From positions 372,001-436,000 of the forward strand of contig NZ_BBWQ01000011.1 in NCBI RefSeq assembly GCF_001463885.1: a DNA stretch of 64,000 nucleotides, in the 5' to 3' direction. Origin of the DNA: Aureimonas altamirensis (lineage in GTDB: Bacteria; Pseudomonadota; Alphaproteobacteria; Rhizobiales; Rhizobiaceae). The notes under the pieces are model-generated. The model did no database searches, was not told the origin of the DNA, and saw nothing but the letters and a program-made list of their open reading frames with translations. A program made the position numbers and the translations under genes. Positions within the stretch are counted from its first letter, which is position 1; the number at the start of each line of letters is the position of its first letter. Below, piece by piece: positions 15,118-22,578 of the stretch.

Positions 15118-17256
15118 TCACTCCGCCGCCTGCGCGGCCGCGCCCGGCGGCGCAAGCGTGACGACGCGATCGGCCATCTGCAGCGTGGATGGCCGATGCG
15201 CAATCAGGATACGCGTCATCGGCAGGTGCCGGACCGCGGCGTTGATCGCCGCTTCGGCATCCGGGTCCAGATGGCTGGTCGCCTCGTCCATCAGCAGCAG
15301 TGCCGGGCGCCGGTAGACGGCCCTTGCCAGGACGACGCGCTGCTTCTGCCCACCCGACAGGGAACTGCCCATGTCTCCGACGAGCGTCTCGTAGCCCATC
15401 GGCATGCGCATGATCTCGTCATGGATATTTGCCATCCTGGCCACCGCCTGTACCCAGGCCGGATCGGGCGCCGGATCGAAGGCGGAAATGTTCTCCGCTA
15501 TGGAGCCGGCAAACAACCTGTCTTCCTGCAACACACAGCCGACCCGTTCGCGATGCGCATTCAGCCCGATCGATGCCAGCGGCACGCCATCCACCAGCAC
15601 CTGCCCCGTCTCCGGCTCGGCCAAACCTGCCATGAGCTTCAGCAGCGTCGATTTTCCGACACCGGACGGCCCGGCAATGCCGACGCACTCCCCGGCCGCC
15701 ACATGCATGTGGAAGCCCGAAAGAATGGGGGCATCGTTTTCGGCATACCGAAAGCCGACGCCCGACAGGGTGATCGCGGCTGGCCGGTTCTCCCCGTCCC
15801 GTACCGGCGCCGCCGCCCCATTACCGACTTTTTCGGGCTCGGCGAAGGCGATGTCGGCAAGGCGTTCGCCATGCAGGGACAGCATCGCGAACTGCAGCAT
15901 CGTGTCGATGAAGCTGGCGACACGCGCCGCGAACTGGTCCTTGTAGGCCAGGAAGGCGACGAGCATTCCGATCGACAGGTCTCCGGCCAGGATCGCCCGT
16001 CCGCCGAGATAGATCATCAGGATGCGGTCGACCCCGAACAGAAAGCCGTTGCCTGCGGAAAACACAGCGTCGAACCGCGATACGGCAAGTTGCGCGTTGA
16101 TCCGCTCGACGAGATGGTTCGACCAGACGCCGCGACGCCGCTCTTCCAGGTTGAGCACCTTGATGCTGCTCATTCCCCGGACGGATTCCATGAAATGGGA
16201 ATTTTCCTGCGCGGCCGCGACGATGGCCTCTTCCGAAAGGCCGCGATAGGGCCGGTAGTAGAGCAGGCGCATGATGGAATAGACCGCGACGCTGGCCAGC
16301 GCGATCCACAGCAGCCAGCCCCCGTAAAGCCACATCATGACGATCAGCGTGACGGACATGATGCCATCCAGTATCGCCTGGATCGCACTTGTGGTCAGCG
16401 TCTGCTGGACGGCATCCACAGATGAGAACCTGGAGACGACATCGCCGACATGCCGCTTCTCGAAGAAGGACAGCGGCAGCCGCTGTAGCTGGTCGAACAG
16501 CGCGACCTTCCACTGAAGCGCCAGGCTGGAGCCGACCAGCATGGTAACCCACGCCCGCGCGAAGGTGGCGGCCACCTGAACGATCAGAAGCAGGAACAAG
16601 CCCAGTGCGATCAGCGTCAGCAGGTCGTAATCGGCGGCAACGACCACTTCGTCGAGCACAAGCTGGAAACCGATGGGCATGGCGATCACCGCCGCCTCGA
16701 TGGCAAGCGATATGGCCAGCACCTGGAATGCCGTGCGCCACAGGCCCGTCGTCCGGGCCAGCATGGTCGTCACACGCAGGCGCGCGGTTTCGTCCCGCCG
16801 CGTGAAACCCTCTGCCGGCCAGGCTTCCAGGGCGACGCCCGTCATCTGGCGCGATACTTCCGCCATGGGCACTGCGCGTCGCCCCTTGGCCGGGTCGTGG
16901 ATGACGATCGAGCCGTTGCGCACCTTCGTCAGGACGACGAAATGATTGTGCCCCCAGTGCAGGATGCACGGCAACCGAAGCTTGCCGAGATCGCCCGGCT
17001 CCAGCCGCAGCGCGCGCGTCGCCAAGCCAAGCCCGGAGCCCACCGACACGAGATCGCGCAGGGTCGTGCCCTTGATCGAGGCTGAGAAGCGGCGGCGGAT
17101 GGCGGCCATGTCCATGCGGTGGCCATGGTGCCCCGCCACCATCGCCATGGCGGCCAGCCCGCACTCCGCCGCCTCGCTCTGCAGGATCAGCGGTGTGCGT
17201 GCGAAGAGGCTGGTGGAAATCCGCCCGGCCAGCGATGCGCCCGTCTCGCCCGTCAT
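15118..17256 (-). CDS. C39-peptidase ABC exporter for double-glycine-leader peptides (PCAT)
   Basis: A 712-residue bifunctional exporter. The N-terminal C39 cysteine protease has its triad intact: Cys32 (LQSEAAECGLA), His105 (GHNHFVVL) and Asp121 (IVIHDPAKG). A six-helix ABC transmembrane domain follows, then an ATPase with Walker A GPSGVGKST, signature [14 protein letters not shown] and Walker B LLLMDEATSHLD. C39 enzymes cut leaders after GG or GA and export the core peptide. The start at 17256 overlaps the HlyD stop (ATGA). The likely cargoes are the two small peptides encoded at 21897-22139 and 22216-22455. Confidence 0.93.
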   Translation of the reverse strand: MTGETGASLAGRISTSLFARTPLILQSEAAECGLAAMAMVAGHHGHRMDMAAIRRRFSASIKGTTLRDLVSVGSGLGLATRALRLEPGDLGKLRLPCILHWGHNHFVVLTKVRNGSIVIHDPAKGRRAVPMAEVSRQMTGVALEAWPAEGFTRRDETARLRVTTMLARTTGLWRTAFQVLAISLAIEAAVIAMPIGFQLVLDEVVVAADYDLLTLIALGLFLLLIVQVAATFARAWVTMLVGSSLALQWKVALFDQLQRLPLSFFEKRHVGDVVSRFSSVDAVQQTLTTSAIQAILDGIMSVTLIVMMWLYGGWLLWIALASVAVYSIMRLLYYRPYRGLSEEAIVAAAQENSHFMESVRGMSSIKVLNLEERRRGVWSNHLVERINAQLAVSRFDAVFSAGNGFLFGVDRILMIYLGGRAILAGDLSIGMLVAFLAYKDQFAARVASFIDTMLQFAMLSLHGERLADIAFAEPEKVGNGAAAPVRDGENRPAAITLSGVGFRYAENDAPILSGFHMHVAAGECVGIAGPSGVGKSTLLKLMAGLAEPETGQVLVDGVPLASIGLNAHRERVGCVLQEDRLFAGSIAENISAFDPAPDPAWVQAVARMANIHDEIMRMPMGYETLVGDMGSSLSGGQKQRVVLARAVYRRPALLLMDEATSHLDPDAEAAINAAVRHLPMTRILIAHRPSTLQMADRVVTLAPPGAAAQAAE

Positions 17257-18575
17257 GGCGCGGCCTCGGCAAGCGGACCGGGCCCCGCGGCGGGACGCCC
17301 CTCGTCGGCGCCTGTCAGGCCGCCACGCAGGCTGTACACCGGTGAAAGGATCCATTGATACAGCGGTCGCGTGTCGGTCAATATGTGGGCCTCCACCTGC
17401 ATTCCGGCCTGCAGCCGGACGTCCTGCCCATAGGCCGCGACATGCTCCTCGTCCGGCGATACGGTGATGCGGTAGACCGAACCCGTGTCCTGGGTTGCCG
17501 TGGCATTGAGCAAGGTCAGTTCCTCCGGCCGCAGCGTCGTGCGGGAAATCGACTCGACCCGGCCGGGATGCTGGCCGAACTTCTGATAGGGAAAGGCTTC
17601 GTAGCGCAGCAGGACGGGGCTGCCCTCGCGCACGAAGCCTATGCCGCTGCTGGGTACGAGCAGCTCCGCCCTCAGCGGCTTGTCTTCCGGCACGATGGTC
17701 AACAGCGGCGTGCCGGCCGATACGGTCTGCCCGGCCAGCGTCAGAAGACCGGTTACCCGGCCGTCGCGCGGGGCCGTCACCTCGATCAACCGCCGCGCCT
17801 CCGCTTCGGAAAGCTGCTGCTCCGTGTCGATGATCTGTCGGCGCATCTCGGAGATCCGCGTCTCTGCGGCGAGATCGAAGCCGGCGATCTGGTTGACGAT
17901 CTCCGCACGCTGGGACTCGAGCTGGATACGCTCCCGCTTCAAACGGGCAAGCTGGCTCCGCTCCGCGTGATAGGCCGACAACCGGGCCTGATACTCGCCG
18001 GCCACGGAGATACCGCGCGAAACATAGTCCTCCTGCCGTTCGGCGAAGGTGCGCGTCTGCTCGACGAATTCGGTCAGGACGACGATCTGTTCGTCCGCTC
18101 CCTCTATTTCCGCCGTCAGGTTGGCGGTCCGCACGTCCAGCCAGCCGCGCTCCTGCGCGTCGAGCTCGACCTGCCTTTCGATGGCGGCGCGTAAATTGTC
18201 CGCCTTGTCGCGCAGAAGCTGCGCCACCGCATCCTGCGTGTCGCCGAGCGCCGTCTGCTGGTCTATGCTGATGCGGTACAGAAGATCGCCGCGCCCGACG
18301 CGTGCGCCGTTGGCCGTCGCCACCTCCGTCACCCAGCCGGATTGCGGCGCGACCATACGGGTCAGCCCTTCCGATGGAAGCAGAACACCGCCGACGCGCA
18401 CCCTCTGCGTATACTCCCCGAACACCAGTCCGACCGCCAGGGCTACCACCAGTACTATGGAGAATATCGCGAAGACGGCCCCCGACGGAGAGGGCATCAG
18501 CATCGGACGTCCCAGCCAGGAATGGCGACGCGATTCCAGCGATTCAGGCCGGAACAGAGGTGCAGGGTCAGCCAT
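17253..18575 (-). CDS. HlyD-family secretion adaptor paired with the C39 exporter
   Basis: A membrane-fusion protein of about 440 residues that links the ABC exporter to an outer-membrane channel. A single N-terminal anchor (VFAIFSIVLVVALAVGLVFG) is followed by a lipoyl half (VAPQSGWVTEVATANGARV), a long coiled coil (about residues 100-250) and the second lipoyl half (VTAPRDGRVTGLLTLAGQTV). The frame is open from a TTG at 18611. A -10-like element at 18623-18628, at the expected distance from the shared operator, would leave that TTG almost without a leader, so I prefer the ATG at 18575. No TolC gene is nearby. Confidence 0.9.
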   Translation of the reverse strand: MADPAPLFRPESLESRRHSWLGRPMLMPSPSGAVFAIFSIVLVVALAVGLVFGEYTQRVRVGGVLLPSEGLTRMVAPQSGWVTEVATANGARVGRGDLLYRISIDQQTALGDTQDAVAQLLRDKADNLRAAIERQVELDAQERGWLDVRTANLTAEIEGADEQIVVLTEFVEQTRTFAERQEDYVSRGISVAGEYQARLSAYHAERSQLARLKRERIQLESQRAEIVNQIAGFDLAAETRISEMRRQIIDTEQQLSEAEARRLIEVTAPRDGRVTGLLTLAGQTVSAGTPLLTIVPEDKPLRAELLVPSSGIGFVREGSPVLLRYEAFPYQKFGQHPGRVESISRTTLRPEELTLLNATATQDTGSVYRITVSPDEEHVAAYGQDVRLQAGMQVEAHILTDTRPLYQWILSPVYSLRGGLTGADEGRPAAGPGPLAEAAP

Positions 18576-18651
18576 CTGGATCGCCGGTCGCCTCTTACCC
18601 TTGAGTTGCAATTGGGCAATAAAGGCTAGATGTCGCGCCGCAAGCCGCTAG

Positions 18652-18667
18652 TCGTACACATGTACTA
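18652..18667. promoter_or_regulatory. GTACA-NN-TGTAC operator in the hlyD / response-regulator divergent promoter
   Basis: TCGTACACATGTACTA contains the perfect arms GTACA (18654-18658) and TGTAC (18661-18665). The site TCGTACAGGTGTACGA at 22563-22578, upstream of the peptide genes, is the same motif. At the same distance from the dyad centre as the TATAAT of the peptide promoter lie TAGCCT on the minus strand (hlyD) and TAAGTC on the plus strand (regulator). Probably a binding site for the response regulator at 18734. Confidence 0.65.
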
Positions 18668-18733
18668 GGGCAGGTGAACGGTCCGCGCCCTAAGTCGCAG
18701 TGCAGGATCGCCGGGAGGGTCGGACGTTTACTC

Positions 18734-19372
18734 ATGGGTGAATTCGAGGATTCCGAGCGCATCGTCATAGCAGACGATCACCCCCTGTTCCGCGATGGCC
18801 TGCGCCGGCTGATGCAGCGCAGCTTTCCGCTGGCGCGCATCGCCGAGTGCGGCAGCTTCGACGAAGCGCTGGCCTGTGCGCGCGACGGCCAGCCGCCCGG
18901 CATGATGATGCTGGATCTCCGCTTCCCGGGCTTCGACGCGGAAACCTGCCTGCCGGCCTTGCGCGCCGAGTTCAAGGGCATGGCGATCGTGGTCGTCTCG
19001 ATGGTCGAAGACCAGACCGAAATCCAGGCCGTGATGCGCAACGGCGCCGACGGCTTCATCTGCAAGTCGGTGCCGCCGACGGCACTGGTCGAGGCGGTAG
19101 AGGCGATCCTGGCCGGCGAACCGGTCATCGTGACGGAAGCGCCTTCGGGCGAGCCGACGGACGAGGCTCCCGGTGTGTGCCTGGACGCCCTCACGCCGCG
19201 TCAGCGCGAGGTGCTTGCCCTCTTGGCGCAAGGCAAGACGAACAAGGAAATCGCCTGGGATCTTGCCATCTCTCCCTTTACCGCCCGCGTGCACGTTTCG
19301 GCGCTGCTGAGGGCGCTGGACGTGTCGTCCCGAAGCGCGGCTGCCTTCCGGGCTGCCGAGCTGGGCCTTTGA
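18734..19372 (+). CDS. LuxR/NarL-type response regulator of the peptide locus
   Basis: A 212-residue two-domain regulator. The receiver has the acidic pair Asp14-Asp15 (IADDHPLF), phosphoacceptor Asp61 ([10 protein letters not shown]) and Lys111 (FICKSVPP). The C-terminal helix-turn-helix reads [20 protein letters not shown], a GerE/LuxR domain. The start is at [15 protein letters not shown]; an in-frame ATG at 18674 would add 20 residues unlike a receiver. Its stop overlaps the kinase start (TTGA). It is divergent from hlyD and embedded among the peptide genes, so it most likely activates production and export. Confidence 0.92.
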
Positions 19373-21069
19373 CGGAACTGGCCGATCCCGTCGGCAGCCG
19401 TTCGGAGCGGCTTGCCCTCATCCGGTCGCTGGGCAGTGCATCGGACAGCCTGCCCTTTGCGCGGCACGAACGCGAGCAGGCCGACATCCGCGTTGCCATC
19501 GTTCTTGTCGCCAATGCCTATCTCTTGCTCGGGCGCGCGTTCTCTTTGCTGTCGCCGACGCTCGGCAATCTATATCTCTGGATGTTCATCGGCGCACTGG
19601 CCTTCTCGCTCGTGATCCGCGCATCGATTCGGCTGTGGCCCCACGCGTCACGGCTGCGCCGCATCACGACGCTGATCTTCGACTATTCCATCCTGACCGC
19701 CACGATCGCCATCGGCGCGCAGTTCGCCGCGCCGATCTATGCCATCCTCATCTGGGTCACGGTGGGCTACGGCATGCGCTTCGGCCAGTGGTATCTTCTG
19801 GCCGGCACGGCCGCATCGCTGGCCAGCGTGCTGGTGATCGGTCTTACCTCGCCGTTCTGGCGGCAGCATCCAAGCCTTGTCGGCATGCTGTTCCTGACCG
19901 CGATGATCGTGCCGCTCTACGCCAACCTCCTGCTGCGGGAAACGCGGCGCTCGCGCGATGCGGCACTGGCTGCCGATATCGCAAAATCGCGCTTCCTGGC
20001 CCAGGCCAGCCACGATCTGCGCCAGCCGATCCATGCCATCAGCCTGTTCACGGCCTGCCTGCGCGAGGAAGGGTTGAACGGCGCCCAAAGCCAGATGACC
20101 GACAATATCGACCGCGCGCTCGACAGCGTGTCGAACCTGTTCCGCTCGCTTCTCGATGTCTCCATGCTGGACAGCGGCAAGATCGAGGTGCGACCGTCCA
20201 CTGTCGACATCGGCCGGCTTCTCAAGGGCGTTGCGGCGCGCAACGGCGAAGCGGCACGCGCCGGCGGCGTTCGGATAAGGGTGGTCGAAACGGCGTTGCG
20301 CGTCCGCACGGACGGCGCCCTGATGGAGACGATGGTGCAGAACCTCGTCTCCAATGCCCTCAAGCACGCTCCCGGCTCGGACATTCTGATCGGCTGCCGC
20401 CGCAATGGCGGGACCGCGGCAATCTGGGTGATCGATCGCGGACCGGGCATTGCGCCGCACGAACAGGCCAACATTTTCGTCGAGTTCTATCGTATCCCGC
20501 AACCCGGCCGCGACGTGGAGGGCATCGGCCTCGGCCTGTCCATCCTGCAGCGCATGGCGCGCCTTCTGGAATGCTCGGTGCAGGTGCGGTCCACGCCCGG
20601 GCGCGGCGCCGGCTTCGCCATCACCGGGCTGCGCATCGCCAGCGCCGCGGAAGCGCGGCACCAGACCACGGAGCGGTCCGGCCCCGTTGCGTACGAGCCG
20701 TTGGCCGGCCTGCGGGTCCTTCTGGTGGAGGACAACAGGCAGGTTCTCGACGCGACCTCGCTGCTGCTGCGCCGTTGGGGATGCGTCGTCCAGGCGGAAG
20801 CCTCGGCCGATTTCGAACCCCAACCGGTGGACGTGGTGCTGACCGATTTCGATCTGGACGGGCCGGTCTCCGGCGTCGACATCGTCGACAGGGTTCGCCT
20901 CAGGCTGGGCGCCGAGGTACCGGCGCTGCTGATGACAGGTCACGACGACGGGCGGGTGCAACAGGCGGTCATGGGGCGGGATATTCCCGTCATGCAGAAG
21001 CCGTTGCGCCCCATCGAGCTTCGCTCGTCGCTGATCGTGCTGGCGCGGCGTCGAGAAGACGGTCGATGA
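19369..21069 (+). CDS. Hybrid sensor histidine kinase with C-terminal receiver
   Basis: A membrane kinase of about 566 residues. Roughly six hydrophobic segments occupy residues 42-190. The dimerisation domain carries His215 ([16 protein letters not shown]); the catalytic domain has the N box ([13 protein letters not shown]), G1 ([10 protein letters not shown]) and G2 (GIGLGLSIL). A receiver follows from about residue 448 with Asp493 (LTDFDLDG) and a late Lys (MQKPLRP). The start is a TTG overlapping the regulator stop, since no ATG lies near the family N-terminus. The last 80 bases overlap the convergent ATP-grasp gene. The membrane sensor could detect an exported peptide. Confidence 0.88.
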
Positions 21070-21892
21070 TCGCGTCGGCAAGACGCCCCTCGACGACACG
21101 GTCGAACGCGGCAAACATGGGTTGCGAATTCACCTCCAGAAAGTGGAGGGTGCCATCGGCATCGGCCATGAAGTCGGCGGCCGCGAATTCGAGCCCCAGC
21201 CTATCGCAGAGCGCCAGAAGCTTGGCGCCCAGCTCGGCCGGCACCTCAGCCTCGGACAGTAGAGCACTCTGCGTCTCTCGATAGTCGAGGTCCGGCGACG
21301 CCAGCCAGAAGCCCATCAAAATCCGGTCGATCTTGTAGATGCGCATTTCCGGCCGCTCCAGCCGGGGCTGGAAAAAGCTTGGATACGGCGCACCATCCGC
21401 ATCCGTGACCTCGTCCACCAGCCTTGTATAGGCGCCCCCGGCAACCGGCTTGGTGATCCAGGCGCCGACGGCCGCCGCTTCCGGCACAGCCGTCGATACC
21501 AGTGTTTCCGGCACGCGAAGCCCCGCCTTCAGGGCCTCGACCAGATTCTGGATCTTGTTGTTTTCGCGCAGGCTCGTCTGTCTGTTGAACATGCGTATGT
21601 CCGGCCGGCCGAGGGCCCAGCCACGTACGGCGCTATACCAGTTCGACGCGCCGGCATGCGCGGCGGCGATATCCTGCGTCGGATACAGAAAGACGTCCTG
21701 CCGAACGAACATCGCCGTCGGCTCCAGCACCTCCCCATCTATCTCCAGCCTGTTGGCCGCGATGTCGATGCGCAGGCCTGGCCCGCCTTCCGGACCGACG
21801 CGGATTTCGCGGTGCGGCAGCTCTCGCTGCCGCAGCCGGTCCAGCAGCACCGTCAGGTTGGTATCGTGAAGGCCGCCGGCAATGACGATCAT
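20990..21892 (-). CDS. Graspetide-type ATP-grasp ligase (ester/amide macrocyclase)
   Basis: A 300-residue ATP-grasp enzyme. Visible features are MFVRQDVFLYP (about 61-71), NRQTSLRENNKIQNLVEALKAGL at about 103-125, the ATP-contacting Lys148 (WITKPVAGG), and the metal-binding set Asp240, Glu253 and Asn255 (FAAADFMADADG, LHFLEVNSQP). This arrangement and length fit microviridin/plesiocin ligases, which activate Glu or Asp side chains with ATP and join them to Thr/Ser or Lys in a precursor. The start is four bases after the precursor stop, which nearly dictates its substrate. An upstream-extended frame exists but runs through the precursor gene. Confidence 0.9.
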   Translation of the reverse strand: MIVIAGGLHDTNLTVLLDRLRQRELPHREIRVGPEGGPGLRIDIAANRLEIDGEVLEPTAMFVRQDVFLYPTQDIAAAHAGASNWYSAVRGWALGRPDIRMFNRQTSLRENNKIQNLVEALKAGLRVPETLVSTAVPEAAAVGAWITKPVAGGAYTRLVDEVTDADGAPYPSFFQPRLERPEMRIYKIDRILMGFWLASPDLDYRETQSALLSEAEVPAELGAKLLALCDRLGLEFAAADFMADADGTLHFLEVNSQPMFAAFDRVVEGRLADAIIDRLLDAAPARSATSEARWGATASA

Positions 21893-21896
21893 CGTC

Positions 21897-22139
21897 TTAC
21901 CGATGGATCTTGGCGTCGAGCGCGATGGGCGACAGGCCGCCGCCATCCTCTTCGCCGACCGCCATCGTGGTTGCCCAGCCACCATCTTCCTCGCCGAGCG
22001 CCTTGGTGGTGGCAAAGCCGCCGCCGCCGTCTTCCTCGCCCACCGCAAGGGTCGTTACCAACTCGGCACTGGCACCGGAGACGCGTTCCTGTTCACCATC
22101 GGTCAGAGTCCGCATGGTTCCGTCGTTCAGATTGGTCAT
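21897..22139 (-). CDS. Plesiocin-like (group 2) graspetide precursor with three core repeats
   Basis: An 80-residue precursor. Three repeats TTLAVGEEDGG (from Thr29), TTKALGEEDGG (Thr44) and TTMAVGEEDGG (Thr57) each contain the TTxxxxEE motif that, in plesiocin-type graspetides, forms two Thr-Glu ester bonds per repeat. The leader LTDGEQERVSGA (residues 12-23) fits the C39 rule with Leu -12, Glu -8, Val -4, Gly -2 and Ala -1, giving a predicted 57-residue core. GAGG eight bases before the ATG at 22139 supports the start. Six dehydrations are expected if all repeats are modified (inference). Confidence 0.87.
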   Translation of the reverse strand: MTNLNDGTMRTLTDGEQERVSGASAELVTTLAVGEEDGGGGFATTKALGEEDGGWATTMAVGEEDGGGLSPIALDAKIHR

Positions 22140-22165
22140 CGTCTTACCTCGTCGTTTGCTTTTCC

Positions 22166-22201
22166 CGGGCGCGGAAACGCGCGAGCAATCCCGCGCGCCC
22201 G
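22166..22201 (-). repeat. Hairpin between the two precursor genes
   Basis: Arms CGGGCGCG (22166-22173) and CGCGCCCG (22194-22201) pair perfectly over 8 bp, with a smaller GC hairpin inside. No T-run follows in the direction of transcription. It may stabilise the upstream peptide message or partly attenuate read-through to the graspetide genes. Confidence 0.5.
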
Positions 22202-22215
22202 CAGAGGCTGGCCGT

Positions 22216-22455
22216 CTAGAGCAGCATGACGACTTCATAGACGCCGTAGGTGATGCCCCCGGCCAGGGCACCGGCCAGCGCGCCAGGCGCGGCCCCGATG
22301 CCGCCGAGCGCCATGCCGCCCAGGCCCCCGGCTACGCCGCCGGCAACCATCGACGCACCCGCCGCCTGCCAGGAAAAATCAGCGCCGCCAACCATATTCA
22401 TTTCGTCGAAATTCAATTCTCTCATTGAATTGATTTCCATTTGTGCAGTGGACAT
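22216..22455 (-). CDS. Class II microcin/bacteriocin-like peptide with double-glycine leader
   Basis: A 79-residue peptide. The leader segment MRELNFDEMNMVGG (residues 11-24) ends in Gly23-Gly24, the C39 cut site. The predicted 55-residue core begins ADFSWQ and is dominated by Gly/Ala with repeated GxxxG-like spacing (AGGVAGGLGG, LAGALAGG), then ITYGVYEVVMLL. It has no Cys. This pattern is typical of membrane-active, unmodified class II microcins. AGGAGA five bases before the ATG at 22455 fixes the start; an in-frame ATG at 22473 lacks a site. It is first in the peptide operon. A role as a signal peptide is possible. Confidence 0.82.
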   Translation of the reverse strand: MSTAQMEINSMRELNFDEMNMVGGADFSWQAAGASMVAGGVAGGLGGMALGGIGAAPGALAGALAGGITYGVYEVVMLL

Positions 22456-22562: not shown

Positions 22563-22578
22563 TCGTACAGGTGTACGA
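22563..22578. promoter_or_regulatory. GTACA-NN-TGTAC operator upstream of the peptide genes
   Basis: TCGTACAGGTGTACGA is a perfect 7-2-7 inverted repeat, matching the site at 18652-18667. Its centre lies about 43-44 bases upstream of the predicted transcription start, adjacent to the weak -35. This is the geometry of class II activation. The rest of the 156-base gap (22456-22611) is notably AT-richer than its surroundings and holds only leader sequence and the uxaC 3' flank. Confidence 0.65.

What the first reader, a model, noticed from the sequence alone, without database searches (positions are those of the whole stretch)
15118..22455. Combined graspetide and class II microcin locus with one C39 exporter
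A three-repeat TTxxxxEE precursor, its ATP-grasp ligase, a second double-glycine peptide, a C39-peptidase ABC exporter with intact Cys-His-Asp, a HlyD adaptor and a two-component system lie together. Both peptides have leaders that fit C39 processing. Plesiocin-type graspetides are established; pairing one with an unmodified microcin-like peptide under a shared exporter and dedicated sensor is, as far as I can tell, unusual and may be undescribed. Joint processing is inference.
Basis: partly seen in the sequence, partly recalled or inferred. Interest (0 to 1): 0.95.

Follow-up and report, generated by a model that had tools for sequence, protein, structure and literature searches.

The report
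Graspetide riding a bacteriocin export locus
A bacterium encodes, beside one exporter and one sensor system, a peptide predicted to be cross-linked by a dedicated enzyme and a plain bacteriocin-like peptide; related bacteria repeat the layout with much the same cross-linked peptide but changing companions, which offers a way to find out what such cross-linked peptides are for.

Summary
15118-22455 holds a C39 exporter, HlyD adaptor, LuxR-type regulator, hybrid kinase, PsnB-like ATP-grasp ligase, a precursor with three TTxAxGEED repeats and a glycine-rich double-glycine peptide. Corrections: the second peptide is best cleaved after GGA (54-residue core); kinase and ligase genes overlap tail to tail. 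GTACANNTGTAC occurs only twice in 64 kb, once in each promoter region.

It is not a fixed pair. In 16 loci whose ligases form one supported clade, the graspetide (mostly two repeats, leader ending [VI]xG[GA], tail L[DE]xxxH) changes little, while 12 of 16 carry 1-6 further double-glycine peptides (32 hits in 252 kb, in 20 sequence groups; 2 hits in 400 kb elsewhere in four of the same genomes). All ten loci with a C39 exporter in the held DNA have them. The window's second peptide has no homologue in what I searched. The nearest exporters found lie on plasmids, with HlyD, mostly with a related two-component system and double-glycine peptides, but without the ligase. So the graspetide module looks added to a bacteriocin chassis, beside two exporter lineages. 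Shared export, regulation and cross-linking are inferred; activity is untested; no immunity gene was seen. New variant of known kinds.

The parts
15118..17256 (-). C39-peptidase ABC exporter (712 aa)
   Evidence: Peptidase_C39, ABC_membrane, ABC_tran; PCAT1 and ComA among solved relatives; Cys/His/Asp motifs intact; 67.9% to a Phyllobacterium plasmid exporter
17253..18575 (-). HlyD-type adaptor (open frame reaches 18611 at a TTG)
   Evidence: HlyD_3 E 3.5e-18; TIGR01843 E 4.8e-40, below its cut-off
18654..18665 (.). Palindrome GTACA-CA-TGTAC between the divergent HlyD and regulator genes; candidate operator
   Evidence: one of only 2 exact GTACANNTGTAC in the window, expected 0.00; only palindrome kind with 5-base arms shared by the two promoter regions
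18734..19372 (+). LuxR-type response regulator (open frame from GTG 18674)
   Evidence: Response_reg E 7.1e-16 and GerE E 1.3e-15; 66% to same-genus L027
19369..21069 (+). Hybrid sensor histidine kinase with several hydrophobic segments at the N-terminus
   Evidence: HisKA, HATPase_c, receiver; hydropathy peaks; 63% to L027
20990..21892 (-). Graspetide-type ATP-grasp ligase (300 aa)
   Evidence: TIGR04187 E 6.8e-15, below cut-off; PsnB 7drm phmmer E 5.8e-13; AF2 model pLDDT 86.6, best Foldseek match PsnB E 5.1e-20, TM 0.73; K148, D240, E253, N255 invariant in 20 aligned sequences
21897..22139 (-). Graspetide precursor, 80 aa: leader ends ERVSGA, three TTxAxGEED repeats, C-terminal LDAKIH tail
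   Evidence: alignment A1 of 14 precursors; leader pattern
22216..22455 (-). Glycine-rich double-glycine peptide, 79 aa (leader to MVGGA, 54-residue core)
   Evidence: Bacteriocin_IIc E 8.5e-5 and DUF6861 E 3.2e-6, both below cut-off; leader pattern; leader part 43% over 28 aa to a Paracoccus versutus peptide, E 6e-4; AGGAG seven bases before ATG
22565..22576 (.). Palindrome GTACA-GG-TGTAC upstream of the peptide-precursor-ligase genes; candidate operator

Best explanation
This is a bacteriocin-type secretion locus into which a plesiocin-like graspetide module has been added. The response regulator, driven by the hybrid kinase, most likely binds the shared palindrome and switches on both the exporter genes and the genes for glycine-rich peptide, precursor and ligase. 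The ligase would join the Thr-Thr and Glu-Glu side chains of each repeat as two esters (six in all). The C39 exporter would then cut both leaders (after VSGA and VGGA) and, with HlyD and a TolC supplied elsewhere, release a triple-hairpin graspetide together with an unmodified membrane-active peptide. Shown: gene content, motif conservation, recurrence in relatives, the shared promoter palindrome. Inferred: cross-linking, joint cleavage and export, regulation, antibacterial action of the linear peptide, protease inhibition by the graspetide.
For: Domain calls; PsnB as nearest solved relative by sequence and fold. 12 of 16 loci with this graspetide type carry 1-6 further double-glycine peptides, and all 10 with a C39 exporter in the held DNA do. 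32 non-precursor leader hits in 252 kb (50, recounted 108), against 1 in 117.5 kb (rest of window and four leaderless graspetide loci), 2 in 400 kb from other places in four of the same genomes and 4-8 per shuffled set. Curated models pass their cut-offs for 2 of 10 such peptides scanned: TIGR03949 class IIb bacteriocin for L027:17886-18071 (28.1 of 21.5 bits needed) and TIGR01847 for L007:1266-1394 (19.5 of 15.7 needed). The two leaders of the window fit positions -12 and -4 of the C39 motif. GTACANNTGTAC only in the two promoter regions. Most exporter relatives without the ligase that I looked at have double-glycine peptides.
Against: No immunity gene fits into the window cluster (gaps between its genes are at most about 160 bases), so a classical bacteriocin would harm its producer unless protection lies elsewhere, which I did not search. 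The second peptide was found nowhere else (8 weak hits besides itself among 61 genomes, in frames of 149-788 codons; none in plasmids) and all its family hits are below cut-off. Eight of ten scanned companion peptides also stay below cut-off. -7 of the precursor leader is Gln, not hydrophobic. L009, L010 and L011 show no C39 exporter near the precursor; for L009 one lies on another contig of the same genome, with its own peptide. The palindrome is not in the other loci and I noticed it by eye before testing it. TolC not sought.
Confidence: 0.72

Rival explanations
1. The graspetide is a protective partner: a protease inhibitor exported with linear bacteriocins to keep them from being digested, which is why it stays constant while the bacteriocins change.
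For: TT[LMK]A[VILM]GEE core and L[DE]xxxH tail conserved across Rhizobium-type, Paracoccus and Halomonas loci beside companions that fall into 20 sequence groups and differ in part even among the closely similar loci L003, L005, L008; plesiocin and microviridins are serine protease inhibitors, and plesiocin's potency rises with repeat number (PMC13097080, passages).
Against: No activity known for this subgroup; target protease unknown; constancy would also be expected of a dedicated toxin or signal.
Confidence: 0.3
2. The graspetide is simply one more antibacterial peptide of a cocktail.
For: Same leader type as the other peptides of the locus.
Against: It is far more conserved than its companions, whereas toxins of such systems vary more than their exporters (PMC5380434, passages).
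Confidence: 0.3
3. One of the exported peptides is the signal for the kinase (autoinduction), as in lactic acid bacteria (recalled).
For: Kinase and regulator in the locus; candidate operator at both promoters; a 19-20-residue core VHLGG..[DN]R.AQYLWS.SL is kept in L003, L005, L008 and L027 next to HlyD.
Against: That short peptide was not found in the window, although the window's kinase is 63% identical to that of L027; the best NCBIfam model of the kinase is NahK/ErcS-like and below cut-off, not a known peptide receptor.
Confidence: 0.2
4. The graspetide and the linear peptide merely lie side by side and use separate exporters or none.
For: In the genome of L009 the graspetide and the C39 exporter with its peptide are on different contigs; relatives L015-L018 have leaderless graspetides and no C39 exporter in the held DNA.
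Against: A double-glycine leader is seen in all 16 loci of the clade (L012 partly hidden by N), and the module lies beside exporters of two lineages.
Confidence: 0.13

Closest known systems
Plesiocin (group 2) graspetides, ligase PsnB
   Same: TTxxxxEE repeats; ligase nearest to PsnB by sequence and fold among solved proteins; high co-occurrence of group 2 with a peptidase-type transporter is already reported (PMC13097080, section 7)
   Different: Loop kept as xAxG, conserved L[DE]xxxH tail; lies with linear bacteriocin-like peptides and, in 5 of 16 loci, a two-component system like the window's; only about 25% identity to PsnB; leaderless relatives exist
Cdz-like glycine-zipper bacteriocins (Caulobacter CdzABCDI)
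   Same: Small glycine-rich hydrophobic peptide with G[GAS] leader near ABC and adaptor genes (PMC5380434, passages)
   Different: Hydrophobic C-terminus, no room for a CdzI-like gene in the cluster, presence of a graspetide module
Class II microcins (microcin V type)
   Same: Double-glycine leader, C39 exporter plus HlyD; plasmid exporters with colicin V names match at about 43-44%
   Different: MccV model E 0.077 only; no immunity gene seen
Alphaproteobacterial plasmid loci with C39 exporter, HlyD, two-component system and double-glycine peptides (Phyllobacterium zundukense L070, Paracoccus versutus L071, Rhizobium sp. L51/94 L073)
   Same: Exporter 55-68%, HlyD 44-55%, regulator 48-54%, kinase 44-48% identical
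   Different: No ATP-grasp relative: none in 72,556 plasmid records at 1e-10

Membership tests
Graspetides (ATP-grasp-made RiPPs) | ATP-grasp ligase of the graspetide kind beside its precursor | tested here: met
   precursor gene ends 4 bases before the ligase start. NCBIfam cut-offs are not reached
Graspetides (ATP-grasp-made RiPPs) | Ester or amide cross-links in the product | not testable with these tools
   needs mass spectrometry
Plesiocin group (group 2) | Repeated TTxxxxEE core | tested here: met
   three repeats in the window; two in most relatives, one intact and one decayed in L009 and L010
Plesiocin group (group 2) | Ligase falls in the group 2 similarity cluster | tested here: inconclusive
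   PsnB is the nearest solved protein but the founding classification papers are not held
Plesiocin group (group 2) | Serine protease inhibition | not testable with these tools
   bench test
Cdz-like systems | 60-151 residues, leader ending G[GAS], secretion system within 10 kb | tested here: met
   79 aa, VGGA, exporter 5 kb away; criteria from PMC5380434
Cdz-like systems | Glycine zipper flanked but not interrupted by proline or charge | tested here: inconclusive
   two glycine-rich runs on either side of one Pro, read from the sequence
Cdz-like systems | Short charged or polar C-terminus | tested here: not met
   ends EVVMLL
Class II microcins | Double-glycine leader with C39 exporter and adaptor | tested here: met
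Class II microcins | Match to a curated microcin or bacteriocin model above cut-off | tested here: not met
   Bacteriocin_IIc 22.9 of 27.1 bits; MccV 14.0 of 27; no NCBIfam hit at E 1
Class II microcins | Dedicated immunity gene | tested here: inconclusive
   no room between the genes of the window cluster; elsewhere in the genome not sought

The most novel reading that the evidence does not exclude
A family of loci in alpha- and gammaproteobacteria in which a little-changing triple- or double-hairpin graspetide is a constant, protease-inhibiting escort for a fast-changing set of linear bacteriocins, sharing their exporter and, in part, their two-component control; the graspetide gained a double-glycine leader when its module was captured by the bacteriocin chassis, since the nearest ligases found outside the clade go with leaderless repeat precursors.
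Probability: 0.25. Interest if true: 0.85.

Novelty: new variant of a known kind. Interest (0 to 1): 0.64.

Why it matters
The natural role of most graspetides is unknown (recalled). Here one graspetide type is tied, across two classes of bacteria, to linear bacteriocin-like peptides and mostly to their exporter, so its role can be tested genetically in a single cluster: does the linear peptide need it? It would also be a clear case of one C39 exporter carrying a cross-linked RiPP and unmodified peptides, and it points to a set of uncharacterised double-glycine peptides, some with Pro/Trp-rich or very short cores.

Tried and rejected
Thought unlikely: that the second peptide is itself a ligase substrate; its core has no TTxxxxEE motif and one Thr, one Glu and one Asp. 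Rejected: a family built on the window's second peptide. In 61 relatives 9 genomes gave a match, one being itself and eight weak (E 0.001-0.009) in frames of 149-788 codons (query four residues short at the N-terminus); 72,556 plasmids gave none at 0.01; the fetched loci gave only one leader match, in L071. Other genomes were not searched with it. No sign of spread of the ligase by plasmids or phages: none in plasmids at 1e-10, none in viral contigs by pattern scan. Led nowhere: the palindrome in other loci; a genome-wide survey of the exporter (one search failed, cap reached); exporters of the L027 lineage on plasmids, best 48.9%, not followed. Not pursued: TolC, immunity genes elsewhere, the six weaker ATP-grasp relatives (35-39% identical).

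Caveats on counts: the loci are not independent. By eye they fall into nine groups, seven with at least one further peptide; the two without are L009/L010 and L012 (7.2 kb only). L011 belongs with L006, which has two, but itself has one doubtful hit, which is counted in the 32. L068 is the same contig as L014 and was dropped. The leader pattern was written after seeing the first peptides; it missed the precursors of L012 and L067 and one short peptide of L003.
Full report
What is there. On the minus strand, from 22455 downwards, lie a 79-residue glycine-rich peptide, an 80-residue precursor with three TTxAxGEED repeats and a 300-residue ATP-grasp ligase. Further down, also on the minus strand, come HlyD and a C39-peptidase ABC exporter. 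Between the two blocks, on the plus strand, lie a LuxR-type response regulator and a hybrid histidine kinase. The ligase and kinase genes overlap tail to tail by 80 bases. The neighbours are metabolic: a TRAP transporter (DctP, DctQ, DctM) on one side, glucuronate isomerase and a GFO/IDH/MocA oxidoreductase on the other.

The ligase. By sequence the nearest solved protein is PsnB, the plesiocin ligase (phmmer E 5.8e-13). The AlphaFold2 model from 20 sequences (pLDDT 86.6, pTM 0.85) matches PsnB best (E 5.1e-20, TM-score 0.73, 25% identity), ahead of PruB, MdnC and the Chryseobacterium ligase. K148, D240, E253 and N255 are invariant in the 20 sequences; that these bind nucleotide and magnesium is recalled family knowledge.

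Relatives. A scan of genome contigs gave 16 loci. Same-genus G220 gave L027; genus searches around Paracoccus sphaerophysae and Halomonas caseinilytica gave L067 and L069 as new loci. Frequencies of a ligase match, the query's own genome always counted: 2 of 21 in the own genus at 1e-40; 8 of 394 in the family at 1e-20, of which only the window and G220 are close; 1 of 397 in the order at 1e-55 and 1 of 385 in the class at 1e-40, each being the window itself; 7 of 125 in the Paracoccus genus, 4 of 90 in the Halomonas genus and 3 of 57 in the genus of Rhizobium wenxiniae, all at 1e-40. So it is rare and patchy.

Two kinds of precursor. The ligase tree (20 rows, midpoint root) separates, with 98/98 support, 16 rows from four (L015-L018). 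In those 16 loci precursors bear a leader ending [VI]xG[GA], mostly two repeats, and a tail LDxxxH (LExxxH in L003, L005, L008). Fourteen were aligned; L067 and L012 were read by translation, L012 being partly hidden by N. In the four others the first repeat begins 4-19 residues from the start, there are 4-8 repeats, no such leader, and no C39 exporter in the held DNA. I infer that the double-glycine leader serves export and was gained or lost once.

Further peptides. A leader pattern (hydrophobic -12 and -4, hydrophobic or C, Q, T, Y at -7, G at -2, G, A or S at -1) in frames of 30-130 codons gave 46 hits in 252 kb of the 16 loci, 14 precursors and 32 others. Controls: 1 in 117.5 kb (rest of the window and L015-L018), 4, 5, 8, 4 and 4 in five block-shuffles, and 2, both unconvincing, in 400 kb from other places in G220, G1259, G1303 and the window's genome. 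By locus: window 1, L003 3, L004 1, L005 2, L006 2, L007 6, L008 3, L013 3, L014 2, L027 5, L067 2, L069 1; L011 1 doubtful; L009, L010, L012 none. One more in L003 was missed by the pattern. Ten loci show a C39 exporter in the held DNA (window, L003-L006, L008, L014, L027, L067, L069) and all ten have such peptides. In L007, L012 and L013 the held contig ends near the ligase, so an exporter may lie beyond. L009, L010 and L011 show none nearby; L009 has one, with a double-glycine peptide, on another contig of its genome. Of ten peptides scanned, two pass curated cut-offs for bacteriocin models and eight do not.

The peptides turn over. The 32 cores fall into 20 groups at BLAST E 1e-3, 11 of them single. 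L003, L005 and L008 have almost the same graspetide but partly different companions. One short core, VHLGG..[DN]R.AQYLWS.SL, is kept in L003, L005, L008 and L027 beside HlyD. L006 and L007 have Pro/Trp-rich cores. The window's peptide stands alone.

Where the chassis comes from. The window's exporter is 67.9% identical to one on a Phyllobacterium zundukense plasmid and 64% to Paracoccus plasmid exporters. I looked at eight such plasmid loci of the 926 records matched. By the pattern, six of eight (L070-L074, L077) have double-glycine hits, the one in L072 unconvincing, some others doubtful; L075 and L076 have none. Four of eight (L070-L073) have a regulator and kinase close to the window's. 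None matches the ligase. The exporter tree (19 rows, midpoint root) has two deep groups: window, Halomonas and these plasmids on one side; L003, L005, L006, L008, L014, L027 and L067 on the other. The window's exporter is only about 43% identical to that of same-genus L027, while regulator and kinase are 66% and 63% identical. So parts were probably exchanged, and the graspetide module lies beside two exporter lineages. The tree tool warns of long branches meeting. I did not survey exporters in whole genomes.

Control. The palindrome GTACANNTGTAC occurs exactly twice in 64 kb, at 18654 (between the divergent HlyD and regulator genes) and at 22565 (upstream of the peptide genes); 100 shuffles give 0.00. 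Of all palindromes with 5-base arms and gaps of 0-8 it is the only kind shared by the two promoter regions. Random interval pairs of like size share some kind in 0.7% of trials and a kind with just two sites in 0.2%. I noticed it by eye before testing. Among 77 loci only duplicates of the window have it, and seven other loci share no palindrome kind among their own promoters. Regulator and kinase like the window's are in 5 of 16 loci (window, L003, L005, L008, L027).

Reading. Shared regulation and shared export of a cross-linked and a linear peptide is the best account. The graspetide is the constant part and the linear peptides the changing part. Given that plesiocin and microviridins inhibit serine proteases (PMC13097080, passages), an escort role is attractive and testable, but nothing here shows it.

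Literature. C39 exporters and HlyD are among the commonest neighbours of graspetide ligases (PMC8939145: sections 5 and 7 read, section 6 in its first part) and group 2 co-occurs with a peptidase-type transporter (PMC13097080, section 7 read), so that part is known. Searches for graspetide (37 papers, 31 listed), plesiocin (9), graspetide with bacteriocin (11, 10 listed), ATP-grasp with class II microcin (0), microviridin with bacteriocin and double-glycine (4) and ATP-grasp with bacteriocin, Paracoccus and ABC transporter (1) listed nothing on mixed graspetide and bacteriocin loci. I saw listings, and of six papers passages or sections (PMC8939145, PMC13097080, PMC5380434, PMC10885120, PMC12291112, PMC9576775). 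The two main classification papers are not held and may mention it.

Noticed in passing
A1 alignment; window 21903-21920: The graspetide precursors of this clade end in a conserved LDxxxH (LExxxH in L003, L005, L008) tail after the last repeat; it could be a recognition element for the ligase or part of the active product.
   Followed up: partly
L003:3866, L005:3866, L008:3919, L027:17414: A 19-20-residue double-glycine peptide core VHLGG..[DN]R.AQYLWS.SL is kept next to HlyD in four loci while other peptides change; candidate signal peptide.
   Followed up: partly
L006:13340-13495, L007:1266-1394: Double-glycine peptides with Pro/Trp-rich cores in Paracoccus graspetide loci; the two cores group together.
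   Followed up: no
L015:7641, L016:7574, L017:7712, L018:7500: Leaderless graspetide precursors with 4-8 TTxxxxEE repeats, one in Bradyrhizobium stylosanthis, without C39 exporter in the held DNA; their ligases are 42-47% identical to the window's.
   Followed up: partly
window 20990-21069: Kinase and ligase genes overlap tail to tail by 80 bases on opposite strands.
   Followed up: no
L009:7609-7851, L010:7610-7852: First repeat decayed (for example SATLSLDELGGG) in two Halomonas precursors while the second stays intact.
   Followed up: no
L070-L074, L077: Alphaproteobacterial plasmid loci with C39 exporter and double-glycine peptides, mostly annotated as hypothetical proteins or not at all; four of the eight loci viewed have a two-component system like the window's.
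   Followed up: partly
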